From contig JABLTG010000043.1 of the NCBI GenBank assembly GCA_016618085.1, forward strand, positions 52,452 through 116,451: a DNA stretch of 64,000 nucleotides. The letters run 5' to 3'. The notes under the pieces are model-generated. The model searched no databases and was not told the DNA's origin. It saw nothing but the letters and a program-made list of their open reading frames with translations. The position numbers and the translations under genes were made by a program. The stretch comes from Neovahlkampfia damariscottae. Lineage: Eukaryota; Heterolobosea; Selenaionea; Neovahlkampfiida; Neovahlkampfiidae. Below, piece after piece: positions 3,401 through 21,772 of the stretch (its first letter is position 1; each line of letters begins with the position of its first letter).

Positions 3401-5895
3401 CTGATTTAAAAAAAATTGGACTCTTTGCATATGATTTATTCAATCGTATCGAAAATCCAACATTAAAACTATTTGCTATGATGACGCTTGCTTACAATTT
3501 TCAATTTTGTGGAAGTGCTGAACAAGGAATGGAAATAGGACATAAAGGATATACTTTAGCTTTGAGTGTTGGTGAATATACCTATGGACCTCAATGCATC
3601 TGGGCAGAATTTGAATTCAAATTGGTTACTGGATGTAACTTTGCAAGATTATACAATCAAATTGAGTCTGCAAAGAAAATTATATATGGGGCAGGGAATA
3701 TTTTCATTGGTGATTTGATTGAATTGGCTTCTGAAAGATGTGCAGTTTTAACTGGGAGGAAAAATGAATTTTCTCCAAAGATCAAAATTCCTAATTTCGA
3801 GACTCGTGAATTAACAAGATCAATACTCTCATGTGCAAAGATTTTTGGATTGTATTTATTAAGAGATTATGATTCTGCCAAAAAGTTAGTTGACGAATTT
3901 TCATCAATCTCTGTTGAATCTATTGGACTTCCAATGCATTATGAAGTTTATTTTTATTCAATTCTTGTCTGTTATTCATTATCATCACCAATAGATTATG
4001 TAGAAGATATCAAAAAGAATTTAGATATTTTGAAAGAGCATTATGATATCAATCCTCAATACTTTTCAGCTCAATATTTTCTTGCTGATGCAATCTATCA
4101 ATCTTTAGTAAATTCAAATACTCAACAAGTGTTCAATTCATTCCTAAAAGCATTGAAATACTCAAAACACATTGATTTTCATTCTGCTTTGACTTATGAA
4201 TATTTTTCTAAATTTTGTAATCAAAATGCTGAATTTGCTGAATTTGCTGATTTCTTTGAATCAAAAGCATTTGTAAAATATAAACGAATGGAAGCTTTTT
4301 GCAAATATAAGCATCTCAGAAATATAGACTTTATGAAAACAGAAGGATCAACATCAGATTCAACGTCATTGAATCAAATTTCTTCTTCTCCGTTCAGTGG
4401 TATAACATCATATGCAAGTGGAAACTCAATTGATCTTCAAACGATTCTTAAATCATCAGAAACGATTGCAGAAGGATTGAATAAAGAAAAACTGTTAAAA
4501 AAATTAAATCAAGTGATTGTTCAAAATGCAGGTGCTGAAAAGGGTTACATCATTTTAAAAGAGAACAATAAATTCATTATTAAAAGTGAATTTTCAAAAA
4601 AGAAAGAAAATGAAAATTTAGAAATCAAAGAACAAACAAATTTGTTATCCATCAAAATCTTCAATACTTGTCTAAACCAAAAAGACACAATCATTTTAAA
4701 AAATGGAAAAGAAGAATTACCAAATGATGAATATGTTCAAGAAAACAATATTAAATCTGTTATCTGTGCACCAATCAAAAGAGGTGGTAATATTTTAGGT
4801 ATTTTATATTTGGAAAATAATTCAATGGAAGGAACATTCACACAAAGTAGAAAATTCATTTTTACACATATTCTTTCTCAAGTAGCTATTGCAATTGAAA
4901 ATATTACTTTGTTTGAAGATGTCAAAACAATCAACACAGCCTATGCGAGATTCCTTCCATCTGAATTCTTAAATCAATTATCAAAAAAAGACGTTCGAAA
5001 TATCCAACCTTCTGATTCAGTTGAAAAGAAAATGACCATTTTATTTTCCGACATTAGAAATTTCACTTCAATCACAGAAAAAATGAATGCAAAAGAGTCA
5101 TTTGAATTCGTCAATGAAATTTTAAGTAAATTGGCTCCTTCAATTTCTTCAAATAATGGGTTTGTTGACAAATTCATTGGTGATTGTGTGATGGCTATTT
5201 TCCCTATTTCTCCTTTAGATGGTGTGAAAGCAGGAATTCAAATGTTAAAGTCATTAGAAGAATTAAATAAAACCAAAGATACCCATATTAATATTGGAGT
5301 TGGATTAGCTTTTGGGAATGTCATGCTGGGTACATTGGGATTTGAACAACGTTTAGATGCAACTGTAATATCAAATATTGTCAACACAGCATCAAGAATG
5401 GAATCTCTCACCAAAACATTCGGAGTGAATATAATCATCACAGAAGAAGTGTTTGAAGAAATAAAAAATGATTCTGAGTTTATTTGTAATTTATTAGGTA
5501 GATTTTATTTAAAAGGACAGGAAAATGCAAAAAAATTGTTTGAAGTTGCACTTAAACTTGATAAATACACATCAAAAGATGCTGAATTTCAACTTGGTGT
5601 GAAGTTCTTTTCACAAAAAAAATTCATCGAAGCTTTGAAAATATTTGAAGGATTGAAAAATGAAAAGAAAGTTTGTGAGTATTATATTAATGTTTGTGAA
5701 TTATATGAGCACAGTAGTTTACCTGAAGGTTGGAATGGTGAAATTAAATTATCAAAAGATGGAGATCCTGAATTATTCACTTCAGAAGAAATCTTCAAAA
5801 AGAAGGAGAAAATATTAATTCAACAATTGATGAGAAATCCAGAAAAATTTGCATTCATATTGGAAGAAGCAAAAAAATTTGATCAAAAAGAATAA
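460..5895 (+). CDS. Protein kinase - AAA ATPase - GAF - adenylate cyclase multidomain protein (4 exons)
   Basis: Exons 460-976, 1017-1516, 1551-1648 and 1680-5895 join in frame to 1776 residues. The introns are 40, 34 and 31 nt, all GT...AG. Residues ~10-270 are a Ser/Thr kinase domain with ILKIF (lysine), HCDIKPQN (HRD variant) and SIIDFES, where DFG reads DFE. Next is a predicted-ATPase module with Walker A GASGIGKS (~residue 345) and Walker B-like CLFFDDLQW. A long helical region follows, then a GAF domain (~1288-1452) and a class III nucleotide cyclase domain (~1489-1632) with FSDIRNF, DKFIGD and NTASRME. The order kinase-AAA-GAF-cyclase resembles bacterial and amoebal signalling ATPases. 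It probably makes cAMP in response to a ligand bound by GAF or to nucleotide state. The start was taken at the ATG at 460 because the frame upstream holds only TTG. Confidence 0.85.
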
Positions 5896-6414
5896 ATTTT
5901 TTTGAGAGTTTGTTGATGAAAAATTATCGATTTAGTGTGTGGCGGGAAGTTGTTAATAAATAAATTTATTTACAAAAAGGCGGAAATTCAAAACTTGACG
6001 GTTTCTCTTCCTACTTCGCCCTAAGCAATTTAAAAACTCCAATCTAATTGAAGCATTCAATTTATTACTTTAATTTACAATTTCCATTTTACCAATTAAA
6101 ACATAACAAAAAGGAATAAGATAAAAAACTGGTAATATGGTAAGGTGGTTTCTGAAATTTTATAAAATTTTAAAAAAATGGTCAATTTTACAGGAAAGGA
6201 TTTTAAGAGCTGACCTACCTACCAGATAACCAGAAAATAAAGATTGGTAATTAAATATCAACAACAACTATTGGGGTATCATTGGCAACTGAATGCCAAC
6301 AACAAAATTTTTCGGAAAATTAATGTCCAACAGAAACGAAGGAAAATTGAAACTCGAGTTTGAAAAAATAACCAATCAAATTATTTTTTTTTAACTTTCA
6401 AACAAAGAAAATAA
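5896..6414. other. Intergenic region, no gene seen
   Basis: 519 bases between two convergent genes (kinase-cyclase on plus, Crinkler-like on minus). The sequence is AT-rich with slightly more GC than the flanks. I see no open frame, tRNA, repeat or obvious terminator structure. Confidence 0.5.
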
Positions 6415-8604
6415 TTATTTTTTTTTATCACTTTTGTAATAATATTCCTTGAAAAATTCAAATATTTTTGAAAAAGTCTTTGTCCAATATTCTCTATTTA
6501 CAAACATACTTTCCTTTTTTACAATTTCTATTTTTTTTATTGACATTGTTGAGTTGGTAATGAAAATGAAATAATTATTTTTAAGTTTGCATGGACTATT
6601 GTTTGCTTTTATTTGTTCTTGTTCAAAAGAATCACCGGACTTTCCACTTAAAGATACTTGTCCATCAATAGTGGTTTTGAGTTTGCATTGAATTCTAAAT
6701 AAACTTGAATCATGAGGAAAAATAATTAAAGAGTCTTGTAAGTCTTTTTTCCCAATATAAAGGGCAATAAAATCATTAGATATGTCAGAAGTATCAATGG
6801 ATCTCCTCAAGACAACTTTGGTGAGATCTTTCACTTCTGAAGTTTGACAAAATTCGATTTCCATTTCAGATTTAAAAGTTAATTTTCTTTTTTTTAATAA
6901 ATTATTCATATACATTCCTTTGAAAAATTGTTCAAATGAACTTGATTCTATTTTACATTTTTGATAAAGAAATGATTTAAATGAATAAAAATATAATGGA
7001 AATTGTTCAAAATCACTTGGTTGAATATTTCCTTTAATTGATTTTGATATCATATTTTTAAAATCATTCCATTTTGATCCCATTCTATCTAATATTATTT
7101 CAAAAAAAATTAAAGGAATAAAAATAGATTTGTTTTTAAGTTCAAATAAACACCCTTGTTCAACTAATGACTTTATCATTTTTTTTATTCCATATGAACT
7201 ATAGTCATCAATTTTCCATTGTTCTAAAACTCCAAGAAGTATAAAATATTCATATTTATCATATTGATGTAATTTATAAATTGATTTTGTTGTTTCTATC
7301 ATATTTTCATGAACTTTATCAATAGAATCATATTGAATTAATGTCATTGCTAAATATTGTAATAATCTAAACACTCCTCCCAATGATGATATATAATTTT
7401 TCCATGATTGTAAATTAAAATCAATTTTTTTATTTTTGATATAATCAGAAATTATTTTAACAATAGTTTTATAATCAAGATTATCTCCAATTTCTAAATG
7501 AATTGAATTTAATCGATAAGATGTTGATGGTAAAACTAATTCTATTGGAGTATCTGAAGTGCCACTAACAATTGGAATAATAAATGTATTATGATCCATT
7601 TCAGATAAAACTAAATCCATTAACTTTTTGGTGTATTTATAAATAATAGTTTTATGTTTTTTATCAGATAATGTAGGATTATTTAAAAATTCCTGATATA
7701 AATCATCATCTAATGCAACATTTTGAATTTCATCAACTCTCCATAAAATTGTTAATTCATCATCTTGATTTAAATTTAAATCTTTTTTAATTTTCAACAT
7801 TATTTCACTTGGTTCCATATCTTTATCAAAAAAAGGTTTAATATCTTTAACATTAATAAAATCACGCATTTCTTTTTTCCATAATTGAGATAATAAACAA
7901 CAAGATAAATGAAAATCAACAGTTTCATTTGACTTAATTTGATTTCCATTACTTTCTTTAATGAATATTTCGATAAAATGATTTCCTAAAATTCTTTTTT
8001 TAAAATTTGAAAATATTTCCTTGGATTCTTTTTCAATTTCTTTTGATTGAAAACTTTTTAAAATTTCTTTTATTGTAACAATACAAAAATTTTCATTTTT
8101 TAAAACATAATTTTTGAGAATATTCCAAATTTCAAAACTAAAACGACTTTTTCCAATTCCACTTCCACCAATAATTGAATTAACTTTCCATTGTTGATGT
8201 AATTTAATTTTCTTTGAAAATAAAATAAAATTTGATAAAATAGATTTCATAATTTTCTCTTCACTTTCTTTTCTTTGAACATAATCAAAAATAAAACCTT
8301 CAGAAGCATATATTGACTTGTTTTCAATTTTTTTTTTTTTGAATTCTTCCAAATTTATTTCTTCTCTTTTTCTTTTGACTCCACGATTTTCCTATTTTTT
8401 TTTAAATAAAAGCTTCTTTACCTTAATTTTGGAAAAACTGTTGAAATAACGAATTCCATCAAATCCAAAATACTTTTCTAAATCTTCTTTTGTTAAGTCC
8501 AAAATTTGTTGAGCTGAATAATTTTTAAATTTTTCTTTGTCTTCTTCATCAATTTCGTTCAAAAGTTTTGTTTTAAGCTCTTCCTCTGTTTCTTCTGTCT
8601 CCAT
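6415..8604 (-). CDS. Crinkler (CRN)-like P-loop NTPase (2 exons)
   Basis: Exon 1 is 8604-8422 and exon 2 is 8391-6415, separated by a 30-nt GT...AG intron at 8392-8421. The join gives 719 residues. Near the N-terminus is a SAM-like helical stretch (YSAQQILDLTKEDLEKYFG). It is followed by a basic KRKRE run and then a P-loop module with Walker A GGSGIGKSR (~residue 138), a Walker B-like ILWRVDEIQ (~279) and a conserved-looking SGTSDTP. This order (short N-terminal domain, basic run, large P-loop ATPase with DE) is that of CRN-type proteins found in protists and fungi. The ATG at 8604 is the first methionine of the frame, and the frame is open further upstream without ATG. It lies directly beside the viral element. 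The family call is an inference from motifs and layout. Confidence 0.55.
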
Positions 8605-8698
8605 TTTGTCTTTTTGAGGCTTTTCTATTTTTTTATCCGAAGAATTTTGAAGTCCGTATTGATCTCGGATTTTAATTGATTTGAAAAAAACAATAAAT

Positions 8699-8705
8699 TG
8701 ATTGG
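8699..8705 (+). promoter_or_regulatory. TGATTGG (CCAAT-type box) upstream of Crinkler-like gene
   Basis: A TGATTGG heptamer lies 95-101 bases upstream of the minus-strand start at 8604. Similar boxes occur before most host genes in the window. It marks the last host-type promoter before the viral element. Confidence 0.4.
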
Positions 8706-8821
8706 TTAAATTTACAACATTGAAAAAAAATTTATAATGAAACACTGACAAAATATAAAATGGAAAATACTTAAAGATTTAAAAATATAATAGTACATAA
8801 TAAAAAGAACAAAAAAGAATA

Positions 8822-9326
8822 ATGGTTATTGATTTTTCAAAAGCAAAAATTTATAAAATAGTTTGTAATACAACAAAATTGGTATATGTGGGAGCAACAT
8901 GTGAGCCTAGATTATCTCAAAGATTATCAAAACATTTATCTAATTTTAAATGTTTCAAAAACAGAAAATATCATGTCACAAGTTTCAAAGTTCTTGAAAA
9001 TAATAATTATTCAATAATTTTACTTGAAAGTGTTCCACAATGCACAAATAAAGATCAATTAAAACAATACGAACGTAAATGGATTGAACAAATAGATTGC
9101 ATAAATAAGTGTGTCGAAGGTCACACATCTAAAGAATATCGAGAAAATAATAAAGAAAAATATAAACAATTATCAAAACAATATTATCAAAAAAAACAAT
9201 GATAAAATTAAAGAATATCAAAAACAAAAATATAACTGCTTATGTGGAGGAAAATATGTAAATAGTCATAAAGCAGAGCATAAAAGAACAAAAAAACATC
9301 AACAATTTATTAATCAAAATGATTAG
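8822..9326 (+). pseudogene. GIY-YIG endonuclease with C-terminal zinc-finger-like tail, frameshifted
   Basis: The N-terminal part reads KIYKIVC...VYVGAT, the GIY-YIG pair (KIY and YVG), followed by an Arg-rich helix, a glutamate in LLESVPQ and KWIEQI. The first frame stops at 9202. The neighbouring frame (to TAG at 9326) continues the same protein with a C-x-C...H-x4-H tail (CLCGGKY...HKAEHKRTKKH). The break sits in a run of eight A at 9189-9196. One fewer A would restore the frame. The family makes sequence-specific or structure-specific DNA nicks and is common in selfish elements and large DNA viruses of protists. The tail resembles the small protein encoded at 12608-12833. Confidence 0.75.
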
Positions 9327-9382
9327 CAATATTATTTATATTATTTAACTAAAATAATATTAATTTTTATTATAAATTTATA

Positions 9383-10321
9383 ATGTCAAAATTGTCTGAA
9401 AATATCAGAAAAAGATTAAATATAAATGAAAAAGAGTTAAAACATGTTTGAGATTTAATGGAACAACCAAAAAAAGACAAGTCAATGAATACTCCACATC
9501 ATATAGCAAATGAAAGAGATTCAATTCATCAGTTAGATTTATTATTTCTTCCACACGATAACAAGCAAAAATATATATTAACAGTAATTGATGTATTTTC
9601 AAGACACGCAGATGCTGAACCAGTCTTAACTAAAACACTGAATAAAATAGTAGAAGCATTAAAAAAGATATATCAAAGAAATTATTTGAATATTCCAAAA
9701 CACTTTTTGCAAGTTGATAGTGACTCAGAATTTAAAGGTGTATTTAATAAATTTGCAAAAGATAATAAAATTGGAATTCGTCGCTCATTGCCTAACTGTC
9801 ATAGAACACAAGCAGTAGTTGAAAGTTTTAACAGTATTCTTGGTAAAATTATATTCGAGTTACAAACCATTGAAGAATTAAAAACTAAACAAACCAATAG
9901 AAAATGGACAGCAAATTTACCTCTAATTGTTGAAGAATACAACAAACAAATTGAGGAAAAGAAACCAAGAAAACCAGAAAAAAAACTAGCAAAATGTCAA
10001 GGAGTTGCTTGTAAATTATTAGAAACTGGTGATAAAGTAAGAGTTGCTTTGGATTTTCCAATAGATCTAGCAACTGGAAAAAAACTTGATACAAAATTTA
10101 GAAAAACAGATATTAGATGGAGTGAAGAACTCCACGAAATTGAAAATATAATATTAGCACCAAATCAGCCACCATTATATCAATTAAAAGGAATTCCAGC
10201 AAATTATACAAAAAATCAATTAAGAAAGGTAGAAACACCAAAAGTCGAACGAAAGATGGTCAAAAATATATTGGTTCAACAATTGTTAAAACAAGAAAAA
10301 AAAATATATAGATTTTTTTAA
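9383..10321 (+). pseudogene. Retroviral-type (rve) integrase, one in-frame TGA
   Basis: A DDE integrase core is clear: HQLDLLFL (first Asp), LQVDSDSEF (second Asp) and AVVESFNSILG (Glu). A C-terminal SH3/chromo-like segment follows with GDKVRVAL and RWSEELHEI. The frame can be entered at the ATG at 9383, but an in-frame TGA at 9449-9451 cuts it after 22 codons. An internal ATG at 9458 gives an intact 287-residue product that keeps all three catalytic acids. The second acidic motif is D-S-D-S-E rather than the usual D-x-G-x-E. In Polintons this enzyme inserts the element into the host chromosome. I cannot tell whether the 9458 start is functional or a remnant. Confidence 0.8.
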
Positions 10322-10343
10322 ATATAAAAACTACTTAAAAAAA
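10321..10343 (+). repeat. 23-nt direct repeat, copy 1
   Basis: The 23 bases directly after the integrase stop are identical to 12553-12575, which directly follow the FNIP gene. Both copies are followed within 3-11 bases by TTAATATATAG and then a start codon, so the pair looks like a shared terminator/promoter spacer. Confidence 0.7.
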
Positions 10344-10353
10344 TATCTCAATA

Positions 10354-10364
10354 TTAATATATAG
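10354..10364 (+). promoter_or_regulatory. TTAATATATAG motif, element promoter, before helicase
   Basis: TTAATATATAG ends three bases before the helicase ATG at 10368. The same or nearly the same motif precedes other element genes at 12578, 13420 (minus strand) and 19283. It is not seen before host genes. Confidence 0.55.
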
Positions 10365-10367
10365 AAA

Positions 10368-12039
10368 ATGTTATTAAAAGATATTAAATTTGTTAAAGAA
10401 GATTTATTGAGTTATGAAGAATTAAAAAAAGTCATTACAGAAAAAATTATATTTAATAAAACAAAAATAATATCCACAAAATTGAATAAAACATTAATAA
10501 TTCAAGGAAATGAATTTTATTTGTATGACAGAAAATTAAAGTTGTATAAAAAGCAAACGTATAAAGATAAGGAACAATGCAATAACGGAGTAATTTATAT
10601 TGTATCTTTGTTGATAAAAGAATCTTATGAAAATTTAGAACAAGTTTCTAAAGACAATCTGGAAACTTATAAAAAAGGTTTTGAAGCGATTTTCCAAAAT
10701 GGAAGTATTTTAAAGTATTTTCCTCAATTGAAGGTTGAATTAACAAATAGAAAGAATTTTGATAAACAGTATATAAATGAAATTCACTTTTTGAATGGAT
10801 ATTTTGATTTAAAAAACGGAGAATTTAAAGAAAGAGAAGAATATTGCAGAATTACAGATTGTATTAACAGAAATTACAAAAAACCAAAAAAAGATTCAAT
10901 GAAAAAAGTGAAAGAATTAATGAGTATAATATATCCAAATGAAGATGATAAAAATTATTTAATGATGACTATAGCAACAGCATTATGTGGAATTGCAACA
11001 ATGGATCAGTCAATTTTGTTTCTTTTGGGTAAAGGATCATCAAGAAAATCAACTGTAATGAAAATGTTAAAAAATTCAATTGGAATGTATTTTGTAGAAT
11101 TAAAATCTGATACTTTTGTGATGGGAAATTAAAAAGCTAACAAAATATTAAATACCTTATTAGAAAAACCACACGCAAGGCTAATATGGGTGAATGAGTT
11201 AGCAGATAAAAAAATTGATAATTTATTATTTAAATCTGTATGTGAAGGAACAGCACAAACCACAAGATTATTTCAAGATGGAATTATAGAAATCCAAATG
11301 AATTCTTTAATTATGATTACAGCAAATACATTTCCAAGCATTAAAATAGATTCTGGAGTTATTCACCATATTAAATCACATACTCATATGTCAGAATTTG
11401 TTGATGAAGAAAATAAAATGGACAAAGAAAATAATATTTATTTGAAAGACAAATATTTAGAAGAAAAAATGAGAGATATTGAGATGTCAAATGCATTTTT
11501 AAAATATATTGCAAATTATGCAAAGAAATATTACAAAGGAATAAGATATGAAGCAACACAAAATTTTAAAGATACAAAAGAATGTATTACAAGTCCAAAT
11601 GATAATTCAAGATTATATTGATGTAAATTTAATTATTACAGAAGATGAAAAAGCTAGAATTGGAAGGGATGAAATGATACAAAATTTTAAATTTACAAAT
11701 CCAAAATCATTGATTACTTGTATGCAATTAATTAACAGTTTAAAAGATAAGAGTATTAGATATGAAGGAACATTCAGATACAAAAAATTAAAAGGTTGTT
11801 ATCTTGGTGTTAAATTTAGTGATAACAATGAATCAGATTCAGAAAGTGATAATGAAGATAAACCAAATTATAAAACCAAATATGATAATTTATTAATTAA
11901 ATATTAAGAACTTGAAAGAAAATACACCCAATTAAAAATTAAACCAAAAATTATTAAAGATATCCAACAAGAAAGCAAAAAGAAAATCAAAAAAGATGAA
12001 AAAGAAGATGAAGAACCATTAATTGTTAATTTTTTGTAA
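10368..12039 (+). pseudogene. D5-like superfamily 3 helicase, broken by two TAA and one frameshift
   Basis: The frame from 10368 has a D5_N-like region and then a degraded P-loop, LLGKGSSRKST. Downstream are ARLIWVNELADK (Walker B-like), LIMITANTFPSI (sensor/motif C) and a GVIHHIKSHTH segment where relatives usually have an arginine finger. An in-frame TAA interrupts it at 11130-11132. A frameshift near 11600 moves coding to the next frame. A second in-frame TAA at 11905-11907 lies in a Glu/Lys-rich coiled-coil tail that ends at 12037-12039. In the P-loop the Gly before Lys is Arg (AGA). That would abolish nucleotide binding in a standard GxxxxGKS loop. Family role: replication initiation helicase. 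I see no clear primase domain. Confidence 0.75.
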
Positions 12040-12098
12040 CTTAATTTTTTAAATATAAAGAATATATAAAAAATTAAAATATATAGTTATAATATATA

Positions 12099-12552
12099 AT
12101 GGAAAAAAAATCAAAACGGATTTAAATTTGCTGAAGAAAATGAAGAAAATAATCTCACTGAAGAAGAATGAGAAGAAGCACAAATTGCACTTAATTCTTA
12201 CAAATTGAAAGCAAAACCTATAGGATGTTATTCTTTTGTTAAAAATGAGGATGGTTTCTGTTTTGTTCCTGACAAACTTTTAACGCATTAACTCATTTAG
12301 AGTTTGGTAGATGTTTCAATCATTCAATAGATAAATTACCAAATTCATTAAAATATTTAGAATTAGGAAAAAATTTTAATCACCCAATAAATAAGTTACC
12401 TAAATCATTAGAATGTTTAATTGTAAATGTAAATTATAAAAAATCTGTGAATTTACCTAAATCAGTGAAAATAAAAAAATTGGAATTGGATTGAAGATAC
12501 TGTAAAAATGGAACTCTATCAAAATGGTATCTTAATTGATAAAAAATATTAA
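12099..12552 (+). pseudogene. FNIP/leucine-rich repeat protein, multiply frameshifted
   Basis: At least three reading-frame changes and one in-frame TGA (12169-12171) are needed to follow this gene. The middle part gives tandem FNIP-type units, NHSIDKLPNSLKYLELG and NHPINKLPKSLECLIV. The N-terminal third is an acidic helix (FAEENEENNL) and a YKLKAKPIGCYSF stretch. One break is a run of eight A right after ATGG at 12103-12110. Another is near 12275-12290 and a third near 12475. FNIP repeats are common in Dictyostelium and in giant viruses of amoebae, where they are thought to mediate protein binding. The role here is unknown. Confidence 0.6.
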
Positions 12553-12575
12553 AATATAAAAACTACTTAAAAAAA
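12553..12575 (+). repeat. 23-nt direct repeat, copy 2
   Basis: Identical to 10321-10343. It begins immediately after the TAA of the FNIP pseudogene and leads into TTAATATATAG at 12578-12588. Confidence 0.7.
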
Positions 12576-12577
12576 AA

Positions 12578-12588
12578 TTAATATATAG
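12578..12588 (+). promoter_or_regulatory. TTAATATATAG motif, element promoter, before zinc-finger gene
   Basis: Same 11-mer as at 10354-10364. It lies 20 bases before the ATG at 12608. Confidence 0.5.
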
Positions 12589-12607
12589 TATTAATAATAT
12601 ATTAATA

Positions 12608-12833
12608 ATGGAACAAAAATATCATAAATATTTTACCAAAAATAAAAAAAACGGAAGATATTAAAAAATACAGAAAAGAATATTATAAAAATAACAGAGA
12701 GAAATTTTACAACAAGATAGAATGCAAGTATTGTGATTGTAGAATTTTATATAACAATAAAAGTAACCATAAAACCACAAAACATAAAAAAAATGTTGAA
12801 ATTTATAATTTTAAATCTAATGCAAATATATAA
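12608..12833 (+). pseudogene. Small C2H2-like zinc-finger protein, frameshifted
   Basis: ATG at 12608 opens a short frame that closes near 12657. The neighbouring frame continues a basic protein with KYRKEYYKNNREKFYNK and then CKYCDCRILYNNKSNHKTTKH, ending at TAA 12831-12833. The Cys-Cys-His-His spacing parallels the tail of the GIY-YIG gene in the same element. The two probably share ancestry by duplication of the tail. The break lies in an AAAAAAAAC run near 12640. A DNA-binding role is inferred only from the Cys/His pattern. Confidence 0.5.
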
Positions 12834-12834
12834 G

Positions 12835-13140
12835 ATGGTAAAGAAAATCAGAGCAACACCAGTGAAAGAACACAAGAAAAAAAAAGATAAAATGGAGATT
12901 GAAATTGATAAATTAAAAAAAGAACAAAAGGAACGAAAAAAAAAAATAAAAGAATAAGAAAGAGAAATCAAAAAAATATCCAAAGAATTTAAAAATTTGG
13001 AACCAAAGAAACCATATTGTGGCATAAAACCTTTAAAAAAAAATCAACGTGAAGCAACAGACAAAGAATGTTACAAAATGGAGCAATTACGCAATTGGGG
13101 TAAAAAAGCCACAACAATTAAAAAACTCTTATCAAATTAA
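12835..13140 (+). pseudogene. Lys/Glu-rich coiled-coil protein with one in-frame TAA
   Basis: The frame starts one base after the stop of the preceding gene and runs 102 codons with a single in-frame TAA at 12955-12957. Before it is a highly charged helix (KMEIEIDKLKKEQKERKKK). After it the same frame continues with EREIKKISKEF and a Cys-containing tail (KPYCGIKPLKK) to TAA 13138-13140. Because the frame stays open on both sides, the internal TAA looks like a point mutation and not an end. I do not recognise the family. Confidence 0.45.
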
Positions 13141-13161
13141 TATTTTATAATCAATAGAATA

Positions 13162-13416
13162 TTAAGAAGAGTTATTATTTAATATATCCATAATTTTATT
13201 AATATTTTCATTTTGTTTGTCAATTTCAATTTTATGGGTGCTTTTGGTTTCGTGTAGTTCAGTTTGTAGTTCTTTAACAGATTTCATTTCAACCAAACCA
13301 CCAAGACAAGAACTTTTTTGAATATTTTTGATGAAATAAGCAGCAGCAAGAACAAAAGGGCTAATTGTTGTTGATACCAATGTTATTATGCCAATTATCA
13401 ATGTAGCGGTTTCCAT
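13162..13416 (-). CDS. Small single-TM protein of the element
   Basis: 84 residues from ATG at 13416. An N-terminal hydrophobic segment (TLIIGIITLVSTTISPFVL) is followed by a polar tail with a probable coiled coil (QNENINKIMDIL). A TTAATATATA motif on the minus strand (13420-13429) stands four bases upstream of the ATG. It is one of the few element genes with no visible break. Small membrane proteins of this type occur in virophages and Polinton-like viruses, but I do not recognise this one. Confidence 0.55.
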   Translation of the reverse strand: METATLIIGIITLVSTTISPFVLAAAYFIKNIQKSSCLGGLVEMKSVKELQTELHETKSTHKIEIDKQNENINKIMDILNNNSS

Positions 13417-13451
13417 AATTATATATTAATCAAACATTTTAAAAAATAAAT

Positions 13452-15248
13452 TTACAATTGAAGAGATGCAAAATGAAGAGTAATATCTGGTGATGTTTGT
13501 GTGCTACATTGCAATTCAAATATTGCTGGACCAGCTGGAATATTACTAAATGAAGATAAAGTTAAAATTTTATTGAAACCACCAGAAGCAAATGAAGCAC
13601 TTTTTGCAATTGTTTGACTGTTTGTTACATCTTGTAATTTGATACTAACAAGAAATCCACCAAATGCACTATAAGCAACAAACAAGTTTGACATAAAGTC
13701 ACCAAGATTATTTGTACCACCATAAAGGAAATTTGAAACTCTAACATATGACCCTGTACTTGTGTTGAAGTTTGAAGCTAATCCCATATTTATAATTCTT
13801 TGATCAACATCACACAGAGTTCCAGTTTTTGGTTGAAGAAAATGATTATATACAGAACTTGGAGCTACTGCACTTGTAAGTACATAATCATTACCACTAT
13901 TTTCTTTTAAAATAATGGAACTACCAGATTTAATTTCTCCTAATGAGTATATTGAACCTTCTACATATAATTTTGAATTTTTAGATAACACATTTGCCCT
14001 TGTTTGGTCACTTACACACACAAGAGCGTTTGGAGTTGCCTTAGCATTCAACCAAAGAACATTTCACACAAGTGGTGAAATTTGATGTCCTCCTATTTGT
14101 GGTTTATGCTCACCAGACTCTTCATATGTCCTGCCACAACCATATAATTACTGATATTATTTCTAAATTCAGCAGTCCAATTATCAGTCGCTGCAGTTGT
14201 AAATCTAGTACCAAGATTTGAAAGTGTTCCAAAATTGATTATTTGATCACCCACTGCGTCAATACTAATATTTGCACCTGTTTTTGAAACAATATCATTT
14301 GTTTCAAGAATAGCTCTTGTTCATACTGATATTTCCAGTTGATGTTAAAACCTTTGAATTAAGTGTTTGAGTACCGTTTGTCATAACAAAATCAGAATCG
14401 GCACCAATATCGGTAATGGTGTAAATTCTATTGGAAGATGGTTGAGGAACGTTTACTGATGTTGTTGTTCCAGTTGCATTATGTTGGGAAACAATTTGAT
14501 TAGAAACACCATAGATTTGTGAAGTAAAAGAGCCAGCATAACCAGTTGTAAATGAATTTCCATCAACATATAATTTTGCACTTACAGTTGTAGCTTTTGA
14601 AGCTTCTACATTTCCCATAATTGTAGGAGTTGTTGAATCCAATGCACCACACCATAGAAGCAAATAAGTTCCAAAATCTGGACGAATTCCACATAAAGTC
14701 GGCTTTTAAGCACCTGATAGTTGTCTTATACCCATTGCAAGTCTTGTATCGTCCATTGCACTCATTAACGCATATGTCCAAGCAATATCAGTAAGCGCTT
14801 GAAATGTAATACCACCATCGTATAATGTTGTGAATCTAACTTTTCCAGTTCCATTTGCATCAAATACCAAGTCATCATTTATACTGATTGAAGTTATCAA
14901 ATTTGTTTCAATTTTTTCATTTGCTTTTAATTGATGAACTTCCGCCTTGTATTTACTTGAATCAGCACCATCTTGATAAACTATAGGTTGGAAATTAATT
15001 CAATATCCAGTATTTAAAGGGATATTTATGTCCCCAGTAACACCTACTTCACTTACACTGTCTTTTATTTTGTTGGTTCCATCACCAATAATAATTTTAT
15101 TTGTAGTCAATACATTTGCTGGTGTTCTTTGTATATATTCATTAAGAGAAGCCATAGTAACTCCAGCAAATGTTGGTAAATTTTCACAAGTTAAATCTTT
15201 TAGTTTTAAATGAATTCCGTTTCCTTCTTCAGTTGCTATTTTAAGCAT
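13452..15248 (-). pseudogene. Fibre/receptor-binding-like structural protein, broken
   Basis: The gene starts at ATG 15248 (MLKIATEEGNG) and runs about 600 codons to 13452. The protein is rich in Gly, Thr, Ser and Asn with short beta-prone units (KIIIGDGTNKIKDSVSE, ATTVSAKLYVDGNSF, NSKLYVEGSIYSLGEI), the style of viral fibre or tail-spike proteins. Breaks are in-frame TGA at 15000-15002, TAA at 14706-14708, a frameshift near 14320-14330, another near 14135, and TGA at 14064-14066. It is divergent from the major capsid gene, sharing a 55-bp spacer. The function is inferred from composition and position only. Confidence 0.5.
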
Positions 15249-15303
15249 TAAAAAAAATAAACTAGAGATTTTATTTTTTTCGAACTGAATTATTATTTTC
15301 TTA
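15249..15303. promoter_or_regulatory. Divergent promoter spacer between fibre-like and major capsid genes
   Basis: Only 55 bases separate two divergent ATG codons (15248 on minus, 15304 on plus). The spacer is almost pure A/T and must hold the start signals for both structural genes. Confidence 0.5.
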
Positions 15304-17079
15304 ATGTATATTATAATTAAGAATTTAAACAAAGAAGGCAATGCATCTTTATCAGCAGTTCCGTTAAAATTAACAAACAGTATTTCAGAATGGGCTGATT
15401 TAAAATCAGAAAGAGAGTTCAGTGTATTGCACGGTAATACAGATTACTCAAGAACAATTTTTACATCATCCAATAATTCATCTGCTGGGGTGACAGTAAA
15501 TTGCTCACCTCCATCAGCAGATACAATGATTCATCCAATAGCTTGGAAAAAGGCAAAATGGATATTAACATTTGTATTTTCAAATGCTACAAATGCAAAT
15601 ATTAATGATCCATTTGGGACAAAAGCAGCTTCAAATTTTTGTTTGAGACAATATCCTTTGAAACAAATATTACAAAATGAAAAATTAAAAATAAATGGAA
15701 ACTGTTATGCAGTTTCAAAAGCTTCTAGCTATTGAAACGCATTTTACAGGTTTGCTAACTTTGTTGATGATAAAGTTAATGAATACAGTTTAACTTCAAA
15801 CCAGTTAAATGAATTCTATAATTACAGTGATGCCTCTTTAACAGCTAAAAATCCATTCGCTCAATATGGAAATCAACAAATAGGAGAATCAAGATTTGCA
15901 TTCAATTGTGATTGTTCAACACTTGTTAGTAATGCCTCTGAGAATGTAAATATTTTGGCAAAAGGTAGTCAAGCACCATATATCAATGCAACTTTAACTT
16001 TCACTTTTGAAGTTATGGAACCAATCAAAATCTCCCCAAGGTATTATTCACAATATGCACTTCACGGGGTTAAAGATATGATATATTTTGCTTCATTTGC
16101 AAATCACTCAAGAATGTTTTGTATAAAAAATGGTGCATTTCCAGCAAATGTAACTCTCAACTCAGTTTCTACTAAACTTGATGAATTTGATTTACATTTT
16201 GCTTATTCAACACCAAAACTTCTTTCTGATATCCCTAATAGTACTGTTTATCTATACCAATTTGTGGATTATTATTCAAAAGAAGCTTCATCAGCAATAA
16301 CAAGTGATGCAACTGTTCAAAAATTATTATTCAATGCAGTTAATTTAAGTTCTGTTCCTAGAAAACTAATAATATGGGTATTTAAAAAAGAATTTGACAT
16401 TATTGAAGCTAATCTCAGTAACTATGAAAAAACAAATACCTCAAAATCTATTATAACAAACATAAATATCACTTATGCAAATAAACAAGGTATTATGTTT
16501 GAAGCATCTGAAAGAGATATTTTTGAAATTTCAAAGAAAAATTATCTTTTAGGTTTATCATATTCTCAAACTGCTAAATGGGTCAGTTCATATGTTTGTC
16601 TCAACTTTGATGAAGAAATTCCAGTCTTTGAAGCTTAAACACTAGGAACATTAGCAAACCCTCAATTATCTTTTAATGTTCTATTTAAATGTGTTCCAAG
16701 TTGAGGTAATAGAACTTATTAATTAAACATAGCAATTATATATGAAAGTACTTGCACAATTATTAAAAATTCTAGTGCAATTAAACAATTACCAGTTTTA
16801 TCTGCTGAGGATGTTATTGTATCAATACAAAAAAAATATGATGTTGTTTTTTCAAGTAAATATGCAAGTAACAACTATAGTGAAAAAATGTCAAAAAGTT
16901 CATTGTTGTCAATATTATCATCAATTTTACTTATTGCAAGAATGATTTGTTAAGAAATACAAAAAGGTGCTTCAATAGTAAAAAGTGTAGTAGATGTTGT
17001 AAAAAAAATAAGTTTTGGTGAAAGTGGAAGTGTTGTTGTAAAAAAGAAAAAAGGTGGAAAAATAAAAACAAGAAATTAA
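15304..17079 (+). pseudogene. Major capsid protein (double jelly-roll) with five in-frame stops
   Basis: One uninterrupted phase of 592 codons runs from ATG 15304 to TAA 17077-17079. It contains five internal stops: TGA 15733, TAA 16636, TGA 16702, TAA 16720 and TAA 16951. There is no frameshift. The middle carries PYINATLTFTFEVMEPIKISP followed by ALHGVKDM, the type of SPF...GI.N hinge between the two jelly rolls of Polinton and virophage capsid proteins. Near the end LNIAIIYEST resembles the last beta-strand of these proteins. A basic tail (KKKKGGKIKTRN) closes it. Length and position next to the minor capsid, protease and ATPase support the call. All Trp codons elsewhere in the gene are TGG. 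The gene converges on the minor capsid gene, leaving 66 bp between. Confidence 0.75.
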
Positions 17080-17145
17080 TTAAATGGTGAAATGTATTAA
17101 ATTTATTCATTATAATTTGTTAAAAGTTGATAAATTATAATATAC

Positions 17146-17655
17146 TTAATCAAATTGTTTAAATACTAATTTAACTGTTATTAAACTATCTGGTGGAACT
17201 TTAAGAGGAAATAAACAACTATGGACATCAAAATAATAAATTTGTAAATTAATATTTTTTATCTCTTTTGAACTTTCTGAATCAATCCATTCAAATTCAC
17301 TGACAGTATAATTTTGAATACTTCTTAAATGTAAATGCATCTTGGTTTTTTAAACTTATTTCAAAATTTTTTAATATTTTTTCATTAGTAAATGATGTCG
17401 AAGATTGAAAATTAAAAGTATTATTTAAATATTCAACTCTTATTGGTAATGCACTTAATGTAAATATTATGTTTCTGACTTGATGTAATTATAAATAGTG
17501 CAATAGTATCCTTCAACTAAAACTGTATCAACTCCAATACTATTGTTTATTGTATAATTTCTTGTTTGAATAACTTCATTTTTTACATTATTTCCACCTG
17601 AATAATAAACATCTATTTTAAAATCTCTTCCTTGGTTTAAATTTGATTTTGTAAT
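17146..17655 (-). pseudogene. Minor capsid (penton-like) protein, fragmented
   Basis: Three overlapping minus-strand frames follow one another. The first has FKIDVYYSGGNNV, the second RNIIFTLSALPIRVEYLNN, and the third runs from 17340 (MHLHLRSIQNYTVSEFEW...FPLKVPPDSLITVKL) to TAA 17146. The last part, with an aromatic strand, F-P-L and PP, fits the single jelly-roll penton of virophages and Polinton-like viruses. Frame changes lie near 17475 and near 17345. No convincing start codon is seen. The upstream end overlaps the end of the protease gene. Confidence 0.55.
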
Positions 17656-18097
17656 GTTTGTTTTTTACACGATTTATGCAATGAAATCCACAAGTTTGAA
17701 CTGGAAGTGATTTAAACTGAAATTTGTAATGATTAAATGATAATTTATATGGAGACTTAAATAATAACCAACTTAAATATGTCTGATTTTGTTTAAATTT
17801 ACAATTTACTTTATAATCACTGAATTTGAATTGTTTATCTGGAAATAATCCATATGGGTCAAAAAACTCAACTTTTTTATCAGAAATCTTATTTAAACAA
17901 CAATAATGCCCGTAATTATCATTTTGCATATACATTTTAATCACACTTCCGTTATTCATATGTAATAAATGCTTAAGTGTCTCATAATTATATAATTCCG
18001 GATATATTACTAATTTATAACCTGATATTTGTTGAATCTGTGAATTTAATAGGGGATATTGTTTTAATTTTTCTATTTTTTCCTTTAAATCTGCCAT
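17618..18097 (-). CDS. Adenovirus-type (C5/Ulp1-like) maturation cysteine protease
   Basis: ATG at 18097 opens a 159-residue frame. The catalytic set is visible in the right order: His64 in NDNYGHYCCL, Asp80 in EFFDPYG, Gln127 in KFQFKS and Cys136 in QTCGFHC. This matches the protease of adenoviruses, Polintons and virophages that trims capsid proteins during assembly. The true C-terminus is uncertain. The last ~15 residues are basic and overlap the minor capsid sequence in another frame, so a small indel just after CINRVKN is possible. The upstream sequence has the TTAAATATATAA-type motif ending right at the ATG. All catalytic residues survive. Confidence 0.75.
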   Translation of the reverse strand: MADLKEKIEKLKQYPLLNSQIQQISGYKLVIYPELYNYETLKHLLHMNNGSVIKMYMQNDNYGHYCCLNKISDKKVEFFDPYGLFPDKQFKFSDYKVNCKFKQNQTYLSWLLFKSPYKLSFNHYKFQFKSLPVQTCGFHCINRVKNKHYKIKFKPRKRF

Positions 18098-18230
18098 TTA
18101 TATATTTAACATATAAAAGTTTTTTTTTCATCAAATTTTGTTTAAACAATCAAAAAATAAGAATTTTTATGAAAAATTACAAGTTTTTTTGTAATTTGAA
18201 ATAAATTTATATATTGTTATATTTTATAGA

Positions 18231-19243
18231 ATGTTATCAATTGGTCAAAAAATAAACAAATATGTTAAAGTTATAACTTATATAAGAGGTGGAGAAAATG
18301 ATGGAAATGTTATTTTTTTAAATAACAAAAATTTAGATGCAACTTTGGAGGAAAAACAAAAATATGAAAAAATGAAAAATAAAAAACAAATTAATATTTA
18401 TGAACATTTATCTGAAACAGAATTAAGAAAATTAATGAAACAAGTTTATGGTCAATCAATTAGATTAAATTTAAAGGATTATAAAATTCTTACTAAATTA
18501 TTATCTAAAAATATTGAACCTCAAGATGAAAGATTAAAAAAAATGTATGATTTGTTAAAAACTGAAATAAAATTAAAATCTGAAGAAAATAAAGAAATTA
18601 TTGTTTATGATGGATTTATACAACAAATACCAAGGAAAAATGATGATGGAAATGTTATTTGGAGACAATATGTTGCTGCACCTTCAGAAAGTGGAAAATC
18701 AACTTATTTGGCATCTTTAATTAAAGAATACAAACAATTAAAACCAAAAGCAAATATTTATTTATTTTCTGATACTCCAAAAGATGAAAAAATTGATAAG
18801 TTAGGAATTATAAGAATTTTATTGGATGATGAATAAATCGCAAATCCAATTGAAGCTGATGAATTAATGGGACCGACTGAAGCTGGACATCATTCACTTG
18901 TAATTTTTGATGATATTGATAGTATTATTGATAAAAAATTGTTCAAACAAGTTTCTGTTTTAAGAGACCAAATTTTACAAAAAGGAAGACATTATTTTAT
19001 CAGCTGTATAGTTACAAATCACAAATTAACAGATTACAAAAATACTGCAATTATTCTTAATGAAGCACAATACATTACATTATTTCCAAAAGCTACAAGC
19101 AAACATCATTTTCATTACATATTATTCACTTAATGTTAAATGATGAAATTGATAGAACATATAAATTACCAACAAGGTGGATTACAATATCAAAATTATT
19201 CCCAAGATACATTATGTATCAATCTGGTATCTATGTGCTTTAA
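18231..19243 (+). pseudogene. FtsK/HerA-type genome-packaging ATPase, one TAA and one frameshift
   Basis: The frame from ATG 18231 has an N-terminal helical region and then a P-loop APSESGKSTYLASLI (~residue 158). A Walker B stretch, HSLVIFDDIDSI, lies downstream. An in-frame TAA at 18834-18836 lies between the two motifs, with the phase unchanged on both sides. Near 19120-19135 the phase changes. The third frame then gives RTYKLPTRWITISKLFPRY...SGIYVL to TAA 19241-19243, the usual C-terminal block of these ATPases. In Polinton-like viruses the enzyme drives DNA into the capsid. Confidence 0.75.
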
Positions 19244-19282
19244 ATTGAAATACATAGATTTTATCAATTTTATTTTATTATA

Positions 19283-19292
19283 TTAATATATA
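19283..19292 (+). promoter_or_regulatory. TTAATATATA motif abutting start codon
   Basis: TTAATATATA ends directly before the ATG at 19293. Same motif as before the helicase and zinc-finger genes. Confidence 0.5.
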
Positions 19293-19721
19293 ATGAAACA
19301 AAAAACTTCGAAACATATTGTTATGCCATTAATTGGTGGAGGGGCAGGAGATGATTATATTGAATCAATTTTAAAAGGTAAAAAAAAAATATATGAAAAT
19401 TTAAGATTTTATTTCAAGGAAGCAATTAAAAATAATAAGATACAAAAAGAAGATTATTCTTTGAAAAACTTCAAGCTTTATCGAGATTATTTAGATAGTG
19501 AATCAAATAATAAAAATAGAATTCCAAGAACAAGAAATACAATGGCCGATATTATGAATAATCAAGTTGATTTAATTATAAAAGAAGCAGAAAAAAGAGA
19601 AAAAGAAGAAAATAAAAAAGTGAATGATGATGTTGTAAAAATGAAACAACAAATGGATAAGTTAGAGAACGAAAGAAAAGCAAAACAAGTAATTTCTAAC
19701 GTATTAAAAAATCAAAAATAG
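19293..19721 (+). CDS. Element protein of unknown function with coiled-coil C-terminus
   Basis: 142 residues with no visible break. It starts with MPLIGGGAGDDYIESILKGK, a Gly-rich turn, followed by Lys-rich helices. A long charged coiled coil (KEAEKREKEENKKVNDDV) ends it. It follows the packaging ATPase in the same orientation. I do not recognise the family. A structural or accessory virion role would fit the position. Confidence 0.5.
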   Translation: MKQKTSKHIVMPLIGGGAGDDYIESILKGKKKIYENLRFYFKEAIKNNKIQKEDYSLKNFKLYRDYLDSESNNKNRIPRTRNTMADIMNNQVDLIIKEAEKREKEENKKVNDDVVKMKQQMDKLENERKAKQVISNVLKNQK

Positions 19722-19751
19722 AAAAGAATTACAAAAACTAATTTAGTATCA

Positions 19752-19934
19752 ATGTTAGTTAATGGTAATTCTGCTTATGTTGTTGGTTTTTTCTTCATGT
19801 TAGATGGAATTATAAATGTTTTTGCAATTCCTTCTCCAATGTGGTTCAATGTATTGGATATTGTCTTTGGATACCTTCCAATGAGTTTCATTGCCATGAA
19901 AATTTTTGGATCAAAGAAAAACAAAACTCAATAA
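19752..19934 (+). CDS. Small two-TM protein at right end of the element
   Basis: 60 residues with two hydrophobic segments (AYVVGFFFMLDGIINVFAI and VLDIVFGYLPMSFIAMKIF) and a basic tail. It is not preceded by the host CCAAT-type box and lies 31 bases after the previous element gene. It is therefore placed in the element, but a host origin cannot be excluded. The next host gene begins at 20181. Confidence 0.4.
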   Translation: MLVNGNSAYVVGFFFMLDGIINVFAIPSPMWFNVLDIVFGYLPMSFIAMKIFGSKKNKTQ

Positions 19935-20180: not shown

Positions 20181-21772
20181 ATGACAGAAAACATGTCCTC
20201 CGTCGCAGAATATCTTTCAAAACATCAACTTGCAAAAGTTATCGAAGATGCTGTAAATGATTGCTATAAATCACAAACAAACGATCCACAAACATTTTTA
20301 GTAAAAAAAAAAAAAAAATTAAATTTCTTCTTCGTTTGTAGTCAGAATATTTCAAAAAAGATGTTTCTTCAAAAACAATCTCAAAAGTTGTCGGAAGAGA
20401 AGTCTTAGATTCTAGAGGAAACCCAACTGTTGAAGTTGGTAAGAAACTTAAAAAAAAAATAATTTTTCTTTCAGACGTTTATTCAGGTGGAAAAAGAGTT
20501 GGAAGAGCATCAGCTCCAAGTGGTGCTTCAACAGGTTCAAATGAAGCAAAAGAACTCAGAGATGGCGACTCAGTAAAAAAAACAACGAAAAAAAAAAAAA
20601 TTAACGTTTTAAAGAAAAGATATTTAGGAAAAGGAACTTTAAAAGCTGTTGAGAATGTAAATGGTCCATTAAATTCAGTTTTAAATGGAAAAAACCTTGA
20701 TTCTCTTCTTGAATGTGATAAAGCAATGATTGAAGCAGATGGAACTGAATTAAAAGAAAAACTTGGTGGAAATTCAATTACAGGATGTTCATTTGCAGTT
20801 GCAGTTGCAGGAGCTAAATTAGCTGATGAAGAATTATTTTTATATTTATCAAGACAATTTGACTCACAAAAAAAGAAATTTAGTTTACCAACACCTTTAG
20901 TTAATATTTTAAATGGAGGAAAACATGCTGGTGGAAAACTTAAAATTCAAGAATTTATGATTGTTCCAGTAGGTGATAAATCATATAAAGAAGCTTTAAG
21001 AAAAGTAGCAACAGTTTATCATCATCTTGGTAAAATATTAGTTAAAACAAAAGGACAATCAGCAAAGAATCTTGGTGATGAAGGTGGTTTTGCTCCAAGT
21101 TTAGATACTCCAGATGAAGCTTTAAACGCTATTGAAGATGCTATTAAAGCTGCTGGATATGAAGTTGGAAAAGATGTTAAATTAGCTTTAGATTGTGCTG
21201 CTTCTGAATTTTATGATAAAGAATCAAAAAAATATGAAATTACAGAAGGTAACTTTGTTACTTCAGAAGAATTAGTTGCTTTTTATGAAAAACTTGTTCA
21301 AGATCATCCTGCTCTTACTTCAATTGAAGATGCTATGGATGAATGTGATTATGAAGGTTGGGCTAAATTTACAGAAAAATTACAAGATAAAGTTATGGTT
21401 GTTGGTGATGATTTATATACAACAAATACTCGTTTAATTAAGTATGTTTCTTTTTTAATTAATAACATTTCATTTTATAGAAAAGGTCTTGAAGGAAAAT
21501 GGGCAACTGCTCTTTTATTAAAAGTTAATCAAATTGGAACTATTTCAGAAGCTATGGATGCTGCAAGAATGATCTTTAAAGAAAATCAAAATGTTGTTGT
21601 TAGTCATCGTTCAGGTGAAACTGATACAACAATCATTTCAGATTTGGCTGTTGCTATTGGTGCTAAATACATTAAAACTGGTGCAACTGCAAGAGGTGAA
21701 AGAGTAGCAAAATATAATAGACTTTTACAAATTGAAGAATACCTCAAAGAAAATAATTTACTTGAAGAATAA
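20181..21772 (+). CDS. ENO: Enolase with N-terminal DPY30/RIIa-like extension (5 exons)
   Basis: Exons 20181-20300, 20342-20438, 20475-20572, 20615-21441 and 21481-21772 join to 477 residues. Enolase converts 2-phosphoglycerate to phosphoenolpyruvate in glycolysis. Clear signatures are REVLDSRGNPTVEV, GASTGSNEAKELRDGD, NLGDEGGFAP, LALDCAASEF, the catalytic LLLKVNQIGT lysine and VSHRSGETDTT. The first ~45 residues precede the normal enolase start. They read as two helices, AEYLSKHQLAKVIEDAVND and DPQTFLSEYF, like a DPY30/RIIa dimerisation-docking module. The introns are 41, 36, 42 and 39 nt. The last (21442-21480) is a multiple of three without a stop, so retention would stay in frame. Confidence 0.95.

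What the first reader, a model, noticed from the sequence alone, without database searches (positions are those of the whole stretch)
8822..19934. Decayed Polinton-like virus integrated in a protist chromosome
Capsid, penton, protease, packaging ATPase, integrase, SF3 helicase and GIY-YIG nuclease lie together in about 11 kb between two ordinary host loci. No polymerase B is visible, setting it apart from canonical Mavericks. The gene set and the FNIP protein suggest a virus of an amoeba-like host.
Basis: partly seen in the sequence, partly recalled or inferred. Interest (0 to 1): 0.9.

Follow-up and report, generated by a model that had tools for sequence, protein, structure and literature searches.

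The report
Broken virophage in an amoeba chromosome
This stretch is the decaying remnant of a virophage, a small virus of the kind that exploits giant viruses, lying among a family of related copies in the chromosomes of what looks like an amoeba related to Naegleria; it is a new member of a known kind.

Summary
The viral genes are real, but by its capsid the element is a virophage, not a Polinton-like virus. A capsid piece matches PF22031 at 1.8e-10; a profile of relatives hits Sputnik V20 at 6.9e-75, mavirus at 9.1e-11. The element runs from 5935 to about 19743, not 8822-19934. The left edge is a terminal inverted repeat shared by many loci; the right end, 5.7-5.9 kb in two relatives, is missing. 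The ORFs at 6415-8751 belong to it.
The absent polymerase marks this copy, not a lineage: relatives in the same genome carry a protein-primed PolB at the matching place. The capsid gene has five nonsense codons and no frameshift; dN/dS against its nearest relative is 0.48, against 0.14-0.26 in four other comparisons.
The genome holds virophage capsid matches on 15 contigs, with two replication gene sets and different upstream motifs. The host looks heterolobosean. Bellas et al. 2023 counted 21 virophage capsids in the heterolobosean Neovahlkampfia damariscottae; this may be that genome, unproven. Protease and ATPase identities rest on motifs and synteny; structure prediction was off.

The parts
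5935..6390 (+). left terminal inverted repeat of the element
   Evidence: 28 of 65 other matches of window:5500-8350 begin at query 430-438 (my count); inverted copy at the right side of C303
6415..8352 (-). 645-aa ORF with P-loop-like GGSGIGKS, cargo of the element; no Pfam match over cut-off
   Evidence: 88-94% identical DNA on C145, C123, C226, C188; Pfam
8392..8751 (-). ORF with SAM domain, cargo, perhaps first exon of the former (inferred)
   Evidence: PF18016 1.4e-6; homologue beside GIY-YIG on C153
8822..9202 (+). GIY-YIG endonuclease
   Evidence: PF01541 2.6e-6
9458..10321 (+). rve integrase, open from an internal ATG
   Evidence: PF00665 1.8e-5
10368..11907 (+). primase-helicase (SF3-like motifs), broken into three ORFs
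   Evidence: PHROG DNA primase 1.7e-9; 89% to C217
12041..12110 (+). conserved upstream block, promoter-like; similar blocks at 10314-10345 and 12546-12577
12100..12560 (+). remains of an FNIP-repeat gene where a relative has pPolB
   Evidence: PF05725 at 12315-12422; frames; C199 comparison
13162..13416 (-). 84-aa membrane-like ORF conserved in other copies
   Evidence: family F5
13452..15248 (-). fibre-like gene beside the capsid gene, broken
   Evidence: C303 homologue is 598 aa; 3 nonsense codons, 2 frameshifts
15304..17079 (+). virophage major capsid protein gene, five nonsense codons
17146..17653 (-). penton (minor capsid) remains
   Evidence: PF21507 0.0026; homology to C7 and others
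17618..18097 (-). maturation-protease candidate, C-terminus altered
18231..19133 (+). packaging ATPase candidate, in two ORFs
19293..19721 (+). start of a longer gene (729-aa ORF on C7, reaching the end of that locus), cut by the right deletion
   Evidence: family F2
19743..19743 (.). right edge of homology to other copies; right terminal repeat absent
   Evidence: 3 of 14 other matches end here, none goes beyond

Best explanation
An endogenous virophage with a Sputnik-type capsid that integrated 39 bp behind a host cyclase gene and then decayed. Shown: left terminal inverted repeat, virophage capsid, penton, integrase and primase-helicase, sister copies, lost right end, no pPolB where a relative has one, nonsense codons, relaxed selection. 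Inferred: the intact form was about 21-22 kb; its rve integrase inserted it; an infecting giant virus's transcription machinery read its TATATA-type promoters; pPolB and helicase copied it; ATPase and protease packed and matured the particles. This copy can no longer do so.
For: Capsid. Penton. Integrase. Helicase. Borders. pPolB in relatives, none here. Decay: 5 nonsense codons and 0 frameshifts in the capsid gene, dN/dS 0.48; branch 0.141 for the window piece, 0.003 for C303. Upstream motif.
Against: No virophage-specific profile for ATPase or protease was at hand; neither matches a known packaging ATPase or C5 protease in the PDB. No giant-virus capsid was found in the host, but the controls were silent too. 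Target-site duplication could not be seen. Bellas et al. warn that stop codons in such elements can be assembly errors (PMC10120064, passages). Dependence on a giant virus is inferred from relatives only.
Confidence: 0.87

Rival explanations
1. A Polinton-like virus without polymerase.
For: rve integrase, GIY-YIG, about 14 kb, no pPolB in the window.
Against: The capsid profile matches Sputnik V20 at 6.9e-75; relatives carry pPolB.
Confidence: 0.04
2. A less damaged copy made to look broken by assembly errors among similar copies.
For: Such errors are reported for these elements (PMC10120064, passages); the genome has many similar copies.
Against: The flanking host ORFs are long and open; the damage includes loss of the right end and of pPolB, not only point changes; nearly all change lies on the window's branch.
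Confidence: 0.06
3. A copy kept by the host for defence against giant viruses.
For: Endogenous virophages reduce giant virus infection in Cafeteria (PMC10945749, abstract start in the listing).
Against: Broken capsid, helicase, ATPase and fibre-like genes and dN/dS 0.48-0.52. A defence role of less damaged sister copies is not excluded.
Confidence: 0.03

Closest known systems
Endogenous mavirus-like elements (EMALEs) of Cafeteria burkhardae (PMC8547959 and PMC10945749, passages)
   Same: Many integrated virophages of several types in one host, terminal repeats, rve integrase, pPolB or primase-helicase, FNIP gene, type-specific promoter motifs
   Different: Capsid much nearer to Sputnik than to mavirus; host probably a heterolobosean, not a bicosoecid; activity untested
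Sputnik virophage
   Same: Capsid and penton families
   Different: pPolB and rve integrase in the relatives here; PMC4409740 (part 1 of 5 read) says only mavirus-type virophages were known to hold these two before the rumen ones
Rumen virophages (PMC4409740, part 1 of 5 and passages)
   Same: Virophage capsid combined with a Polinton-type pPolB, linear with terminal inverted repeats
   Different: Rumen virophages lack a detectable integrase and a recognisable penton; both are present here
Virophage capsids counted in Neovahlkampfia damariscottae (PMC10120064, passages)
   Same: Heterolobosean host with about twenty virophage capsid genes; perhaps the same genome
   Different: The passages that I saw give a count only, no anatomy

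Membership tests
Virophages (class Maveriviricetes, criteria of PMC9952930) | virophage-type hexon (capsid) | tested here: met
   PF22031 1.8e-10 over cut-off; Sputnik V20 6.9e-75 by profile of relatives
Virophages (class Maveriviricetes, criteria of PMC9952930) | virophage-type ATPase | tested here: inconclusive
   P-loop family with Walker motifs; Pox_A32 in 3 of 19 relatives; the study group's HMM was not at hand
Virophages (class Maveriviricetes, criteria of PMC9952930) | virophage-type cysteine protease | tested here: inconclusive
   H-D-Q-C set conserved (its likeness to adenain is recalled); no PDB or C5 match
Virophages (class Maveriviricetes, criteria of PMC9952930) | penton (expected, not required) | tested here: met
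   homologue on C7 PF21507 2.4e-8 over cut-off; window piece alone only 0.0026
Virophages (class Maveriviricetes, criteria of PMC9952930) | dsDNA genome of 15-45 kb (expected, not required) | tested here: inconclusive
   this truncated copy is 13.8 kb; about 21-22 kb inferred for the intact form
Virophages (class Maveriviricetes, criteria of PMC9952930) | dependence on a giant virus (older criterion) | not testable with these tools
   needs co-infection
Polinton-like viruses | capsid without virophage similarity | tested here: not met
Polinton-like viruses | PLV-type FtsK-HerA ATPase profile | not tested
   profile not at hand
Maverick/Polinton | protein-primed PolB in the element | tested here: not met
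   none in the window; present in relatives
Rumen virophages (Ruviroviridae) | no integrase, penton diverged beyond recognition | tested here: not met
   rve integrase and V18/19-type penton present
Mavirus family (Maviroviridae) | capsid groups with mavirus | tested here: inconclusive
   profile much nearer to Sputnik than mavirus; no tree with named references was possible

The most novel reading that the evidence does not exclude
A second, independent multi-type virophage system like that of Cafeteria, in a heterolobosean: at least two types with unlike replication genes (pPolB with SF3-type helicase; a 1329-aa SF1-helicase protein) and unlike upstream motifs coexist in one genome, exchange capsid genes, and answer to different giant viruses. 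The window copy comes from a type that joins a Sputnik-type capsid to a mavirus-like replication and integration set.
Probability: 0.45. Interest if true: 0.7.

Novelty: new member of a known kind. Interest (0 to 1): 0.45.

Why it matters
Virophage capsids have been counted in a Discoba genome (PMC10120064) but, in the passages that I saw, not dissected. If the reading holds, one host keeps virophages of different replication and promoter types, which makes it testable whether each type answers to its own giant virus, as proposed for Cafeteria. It also shows that the absence of a polymerase in one decayed copy must not be used to name a lineage.

Tried and rejected
Alternative genetic code (TGA as Trp, TAA as Gln): rejected. 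The first in-frame TGA of the capsid gene falls on a residue that is not Trp in the aligned relatives, and the host cyclase ORF runs 1403 codons without a stop.

PLV label: rejected on the capsid. GIY-YIG as left border and the 60-aa ORF 19752-19934 as an element gene: rejected by the homology edges.

Led nowhere: scans of viral contigs with one capsid and with alignment A1 (none confirmed); phage records by tblastn with P0007 (none); Rfam and tRNA scans of the window (none); host rRNA (unanswered; none); ribosomal L2 (none in this genome though 13 of 14 controls rang, so introns or gaps may hide it); giant-virus capsid families (none, controls silent); PADLOC (one weak match, 0.0019, to the C274 helicase protein, none for the other five).

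Rows used and dropped: A1 took 6 of the 8 proteins, which itself scored only the 8000 best candidates; A4 took 17 of the 23; A5 took 19 of the 31. The capsid tree has 12 of the 15 contigs (C132, C286, C25 left out) and 6 metagenome proteins; the window enters with its second piece only.

Full report
What is there. The window lies on a 116-kb contig (C245) of a 20.4-Mb, 307-contig genome; G+C per kilobase in the window is 20-35%. The flanks are ordinary host genes: a 1403-aa GAF and guanylate-cyclase protein at 1684-5895 and an enolase at 20726-21772. Between them lies a viral element. Its capsid gene is in pieces that match the Sputnik capsid, and its penton, integrase, GIY-YIG nuclease, FNIP repeats and primase-helicase are recognisable.

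Borders. A search with window:5500-8350 gave 66 matches in the genome, one of them the window itself; 28 of the other 65 begin at query 430-438, that is at window 5929-5937 (my count of the list). The tip begins at 5935, 39 bp after the end of the cyclase ORF. The same sequence stands inverted at the right side of C303 by alignment, and of C214 and C300 by the strands and coordinates, so it is a terminal inverted repeat. On the right, window:18900-20250 gave 15 matches including itself; 3 of the other 14 end at 19743 and none goes beyond. Blastn found no long second copy of the left repeat in the window. In C214 and C300 about 5.9 and 5.7 kb lie between this point and the outer end of the repeat. 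The right end of this copy is therefore deleted. They are cargo of the element. No target-site duplication could be seen.

The missing polymerase. PF03175 (DNA_pol_B_2) has 9 matches on 9 contigs of the genome, 8 over the cut-off. C268 holds an open frame of 610 aa (PF03175 6.7e-9). C199 is collinear with the window: 94% identical to 12022-12108, then pPolB, then 88% identical to 12545-12892. C217 carries the helicase at 89% identity, a pPolB match that begins only at residue 251, and FNIP repeats. The window has the FNIP remains but no pPolB (best tblastn E 0.83). The simplest reading is that this copy lost its polymerase. In this genome FNIP repeats were found on only 4 contigs (7 matches on C217, C181, C245, C247), each of which also matches element sequence, so they look like virophage cargo, as in mavirus and its relatives (PMC10945749, passages).

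Decay. Against C303, the window capsid gene shows five nonsense codons and no frameshift, differences over codon positions of 42, 37 and 56, and dN/dS 0.48. Four other capsid comparisons gave 0.26, 0.23, 0.23 and 0.14; the last is C274 against C25, whose frame is broken. In a tree of 18 capsid sequences the window piece has a branch of 0.141 and C303 one of 0.003. The fibre-like gene shows 3 nonsense codons, 2 frameshifts and dN/dS 0.52. A dN/dS under 1 fits a copy that was under selection for part of the time. C303 is itself defective: in the 10 kb read, the capsid gene is followed directly by the next family gene without penton or protease ORFs, its capsid is shorter at the C-terminus, and a 369-aa ORF that grouped with the ATPases lacks the Walker A motif. 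Bellas et al. warn that stop codons in such elements can be assembly errors (PMC10120064, passages); reads are needed to exclude this.

The family in this genome. PF22031 gave 16 matches on 15 contigs and none in 14 control genomes; 7 of the 16 lie in open frames of 499-637 aa. DNA similarity adds fragments on C153 and C181. Two replication sets exist: the window type (SF3-type helicase and pPolB) and a second type on C274, C133 and C25 with a protein of 1329 aa on C274 that carries an SF1 helicase and an endonuclease-VII-like end. Metagenome capsids interleave with the host's: P0001 sits with the second type, P0002 and P0003 beside the window and C303. In 300-bp steps the capsid stretch 15100-16599 is 93-95% identical to C303, whereas to C188 and C214 only pieces align from 15400 on (67-72% in the pieces longer than 60 bases); the ATPase stretch 18100-19299 is 88-94% identical to C188 and C214. 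This suggests exchange of capsid genes between types; C303 lacks the ATPase, so it cannot serve as a check.

Upstream motifs. TATATA lies within 40 bp upstream in 17 of 29 genes of the window type (genes of C7 included), 1 of 14 of the second type and 0 of 20 host ORFs. For the window alone it is 7 of 10, against 3.0 on average in 2000 dinucleotide shuffles, 5 of which reached 7. Homologous genes were counted more than once and the gene starts were chosen by me. The mimivirus early motif AAAATTGA (recalled) was in 0 of 29, 0 of 14 and 1 of 20; TCTA was in 5 of 29, 2 of 14 and 1 of 20.

Protease and ATPase. Neither has a decisive family match. The protease's relatives (23 found) keep H64, D80 and Q127 without exception and C136 in at least 90% of the 18 aligned; order and spacing resemble adenain, which is recalled. 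PDB searches with two alignments gave nothing. The ATPase relatives (31 found) gave only short P-loop matches in the PDB and Pox_A32 in 3 of 19.

Host. The enolase is nearest by far to PDB 7ugh (465 bits against 291 for the next), which is Naegleria fowleri enolase (PMC11321563, passages). PDB coverage of protists is thin, so this supports a heterolobosean but does not prove it. Bellas et al. 2023 report 21 virophage capsids in the heterolobosean Neovahlkampfia damariscottae (PMC10120064, passages; lineage). That genome or a near one is my guess.

Mechanism. Shown: repeats, integrase, capsid set, sister copies, losses. Inferred: integration by the rve integrase, wake-up by a giant virus that reads the TATATA-type promoters, replication by pPolB and helicase, packaging by the ATPase, maturation by the protease. 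The inference follows mavirus and its endogenous relatives, where types carry distinct promoter motifs and only the type with the CroV late motif answered to CroV (PMC10945749, passages). No giant-virus capsid was found in this genome, with silent controls.

Literature searched. Of the 5 papers that hold both 'heterolobosea' and 'virophage' and the 9 that hold 'Neovahlkampfia' and 'genome', I saw listings, and passages of PMC10120064, PMC11702301, PMC11043551, PMC12482156 and PMC8134430; none of that text describes the anatomy of these elements. Supplements could not be read, so a description there is possible.

Noticed in passing
L037 5654-6393 (C274) and L045 763-2998 (C25): Long arrays of short repeats (reading as 'FIFLSY..LIMIYK') lie beyond the 1329-aa helicase gene of the second virophage type, perhaps its terminal region.
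   Followed up: no
L037 1330-5319: A 1329-aa protein of the second type: SF1 helicase near residues 900-1100, endonuclease-VII-like C-terminus (phrog_1035 1.3e-10), about 900 N-terminal residues without a Pfam match over cut-off.
   Followed up: partly
window 6415-8751: A SAM-domain ORF and a 645-aa ORF with a P-loop-like motif are cargo of the window-type element; function unknown, no PADLOC match.
   Followed up: partly
window 19752-19934: A 60-aa hydrophobic ORF just outside the right edge, without another copy in the genome search; perhaps the tail of a host gene cut by the deletion.
   Followed up: no
L036 1499-3253 (C274): A hAT-type transposase ORF of 584 aa (PF05699 8.5e-20) lies beside an element copy.
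   Followed up: no
L009 6419-6892 (C303): A DUF4116 ORF (PF13475 6.9e-7) lies inside an element copy.
   Followed up: no
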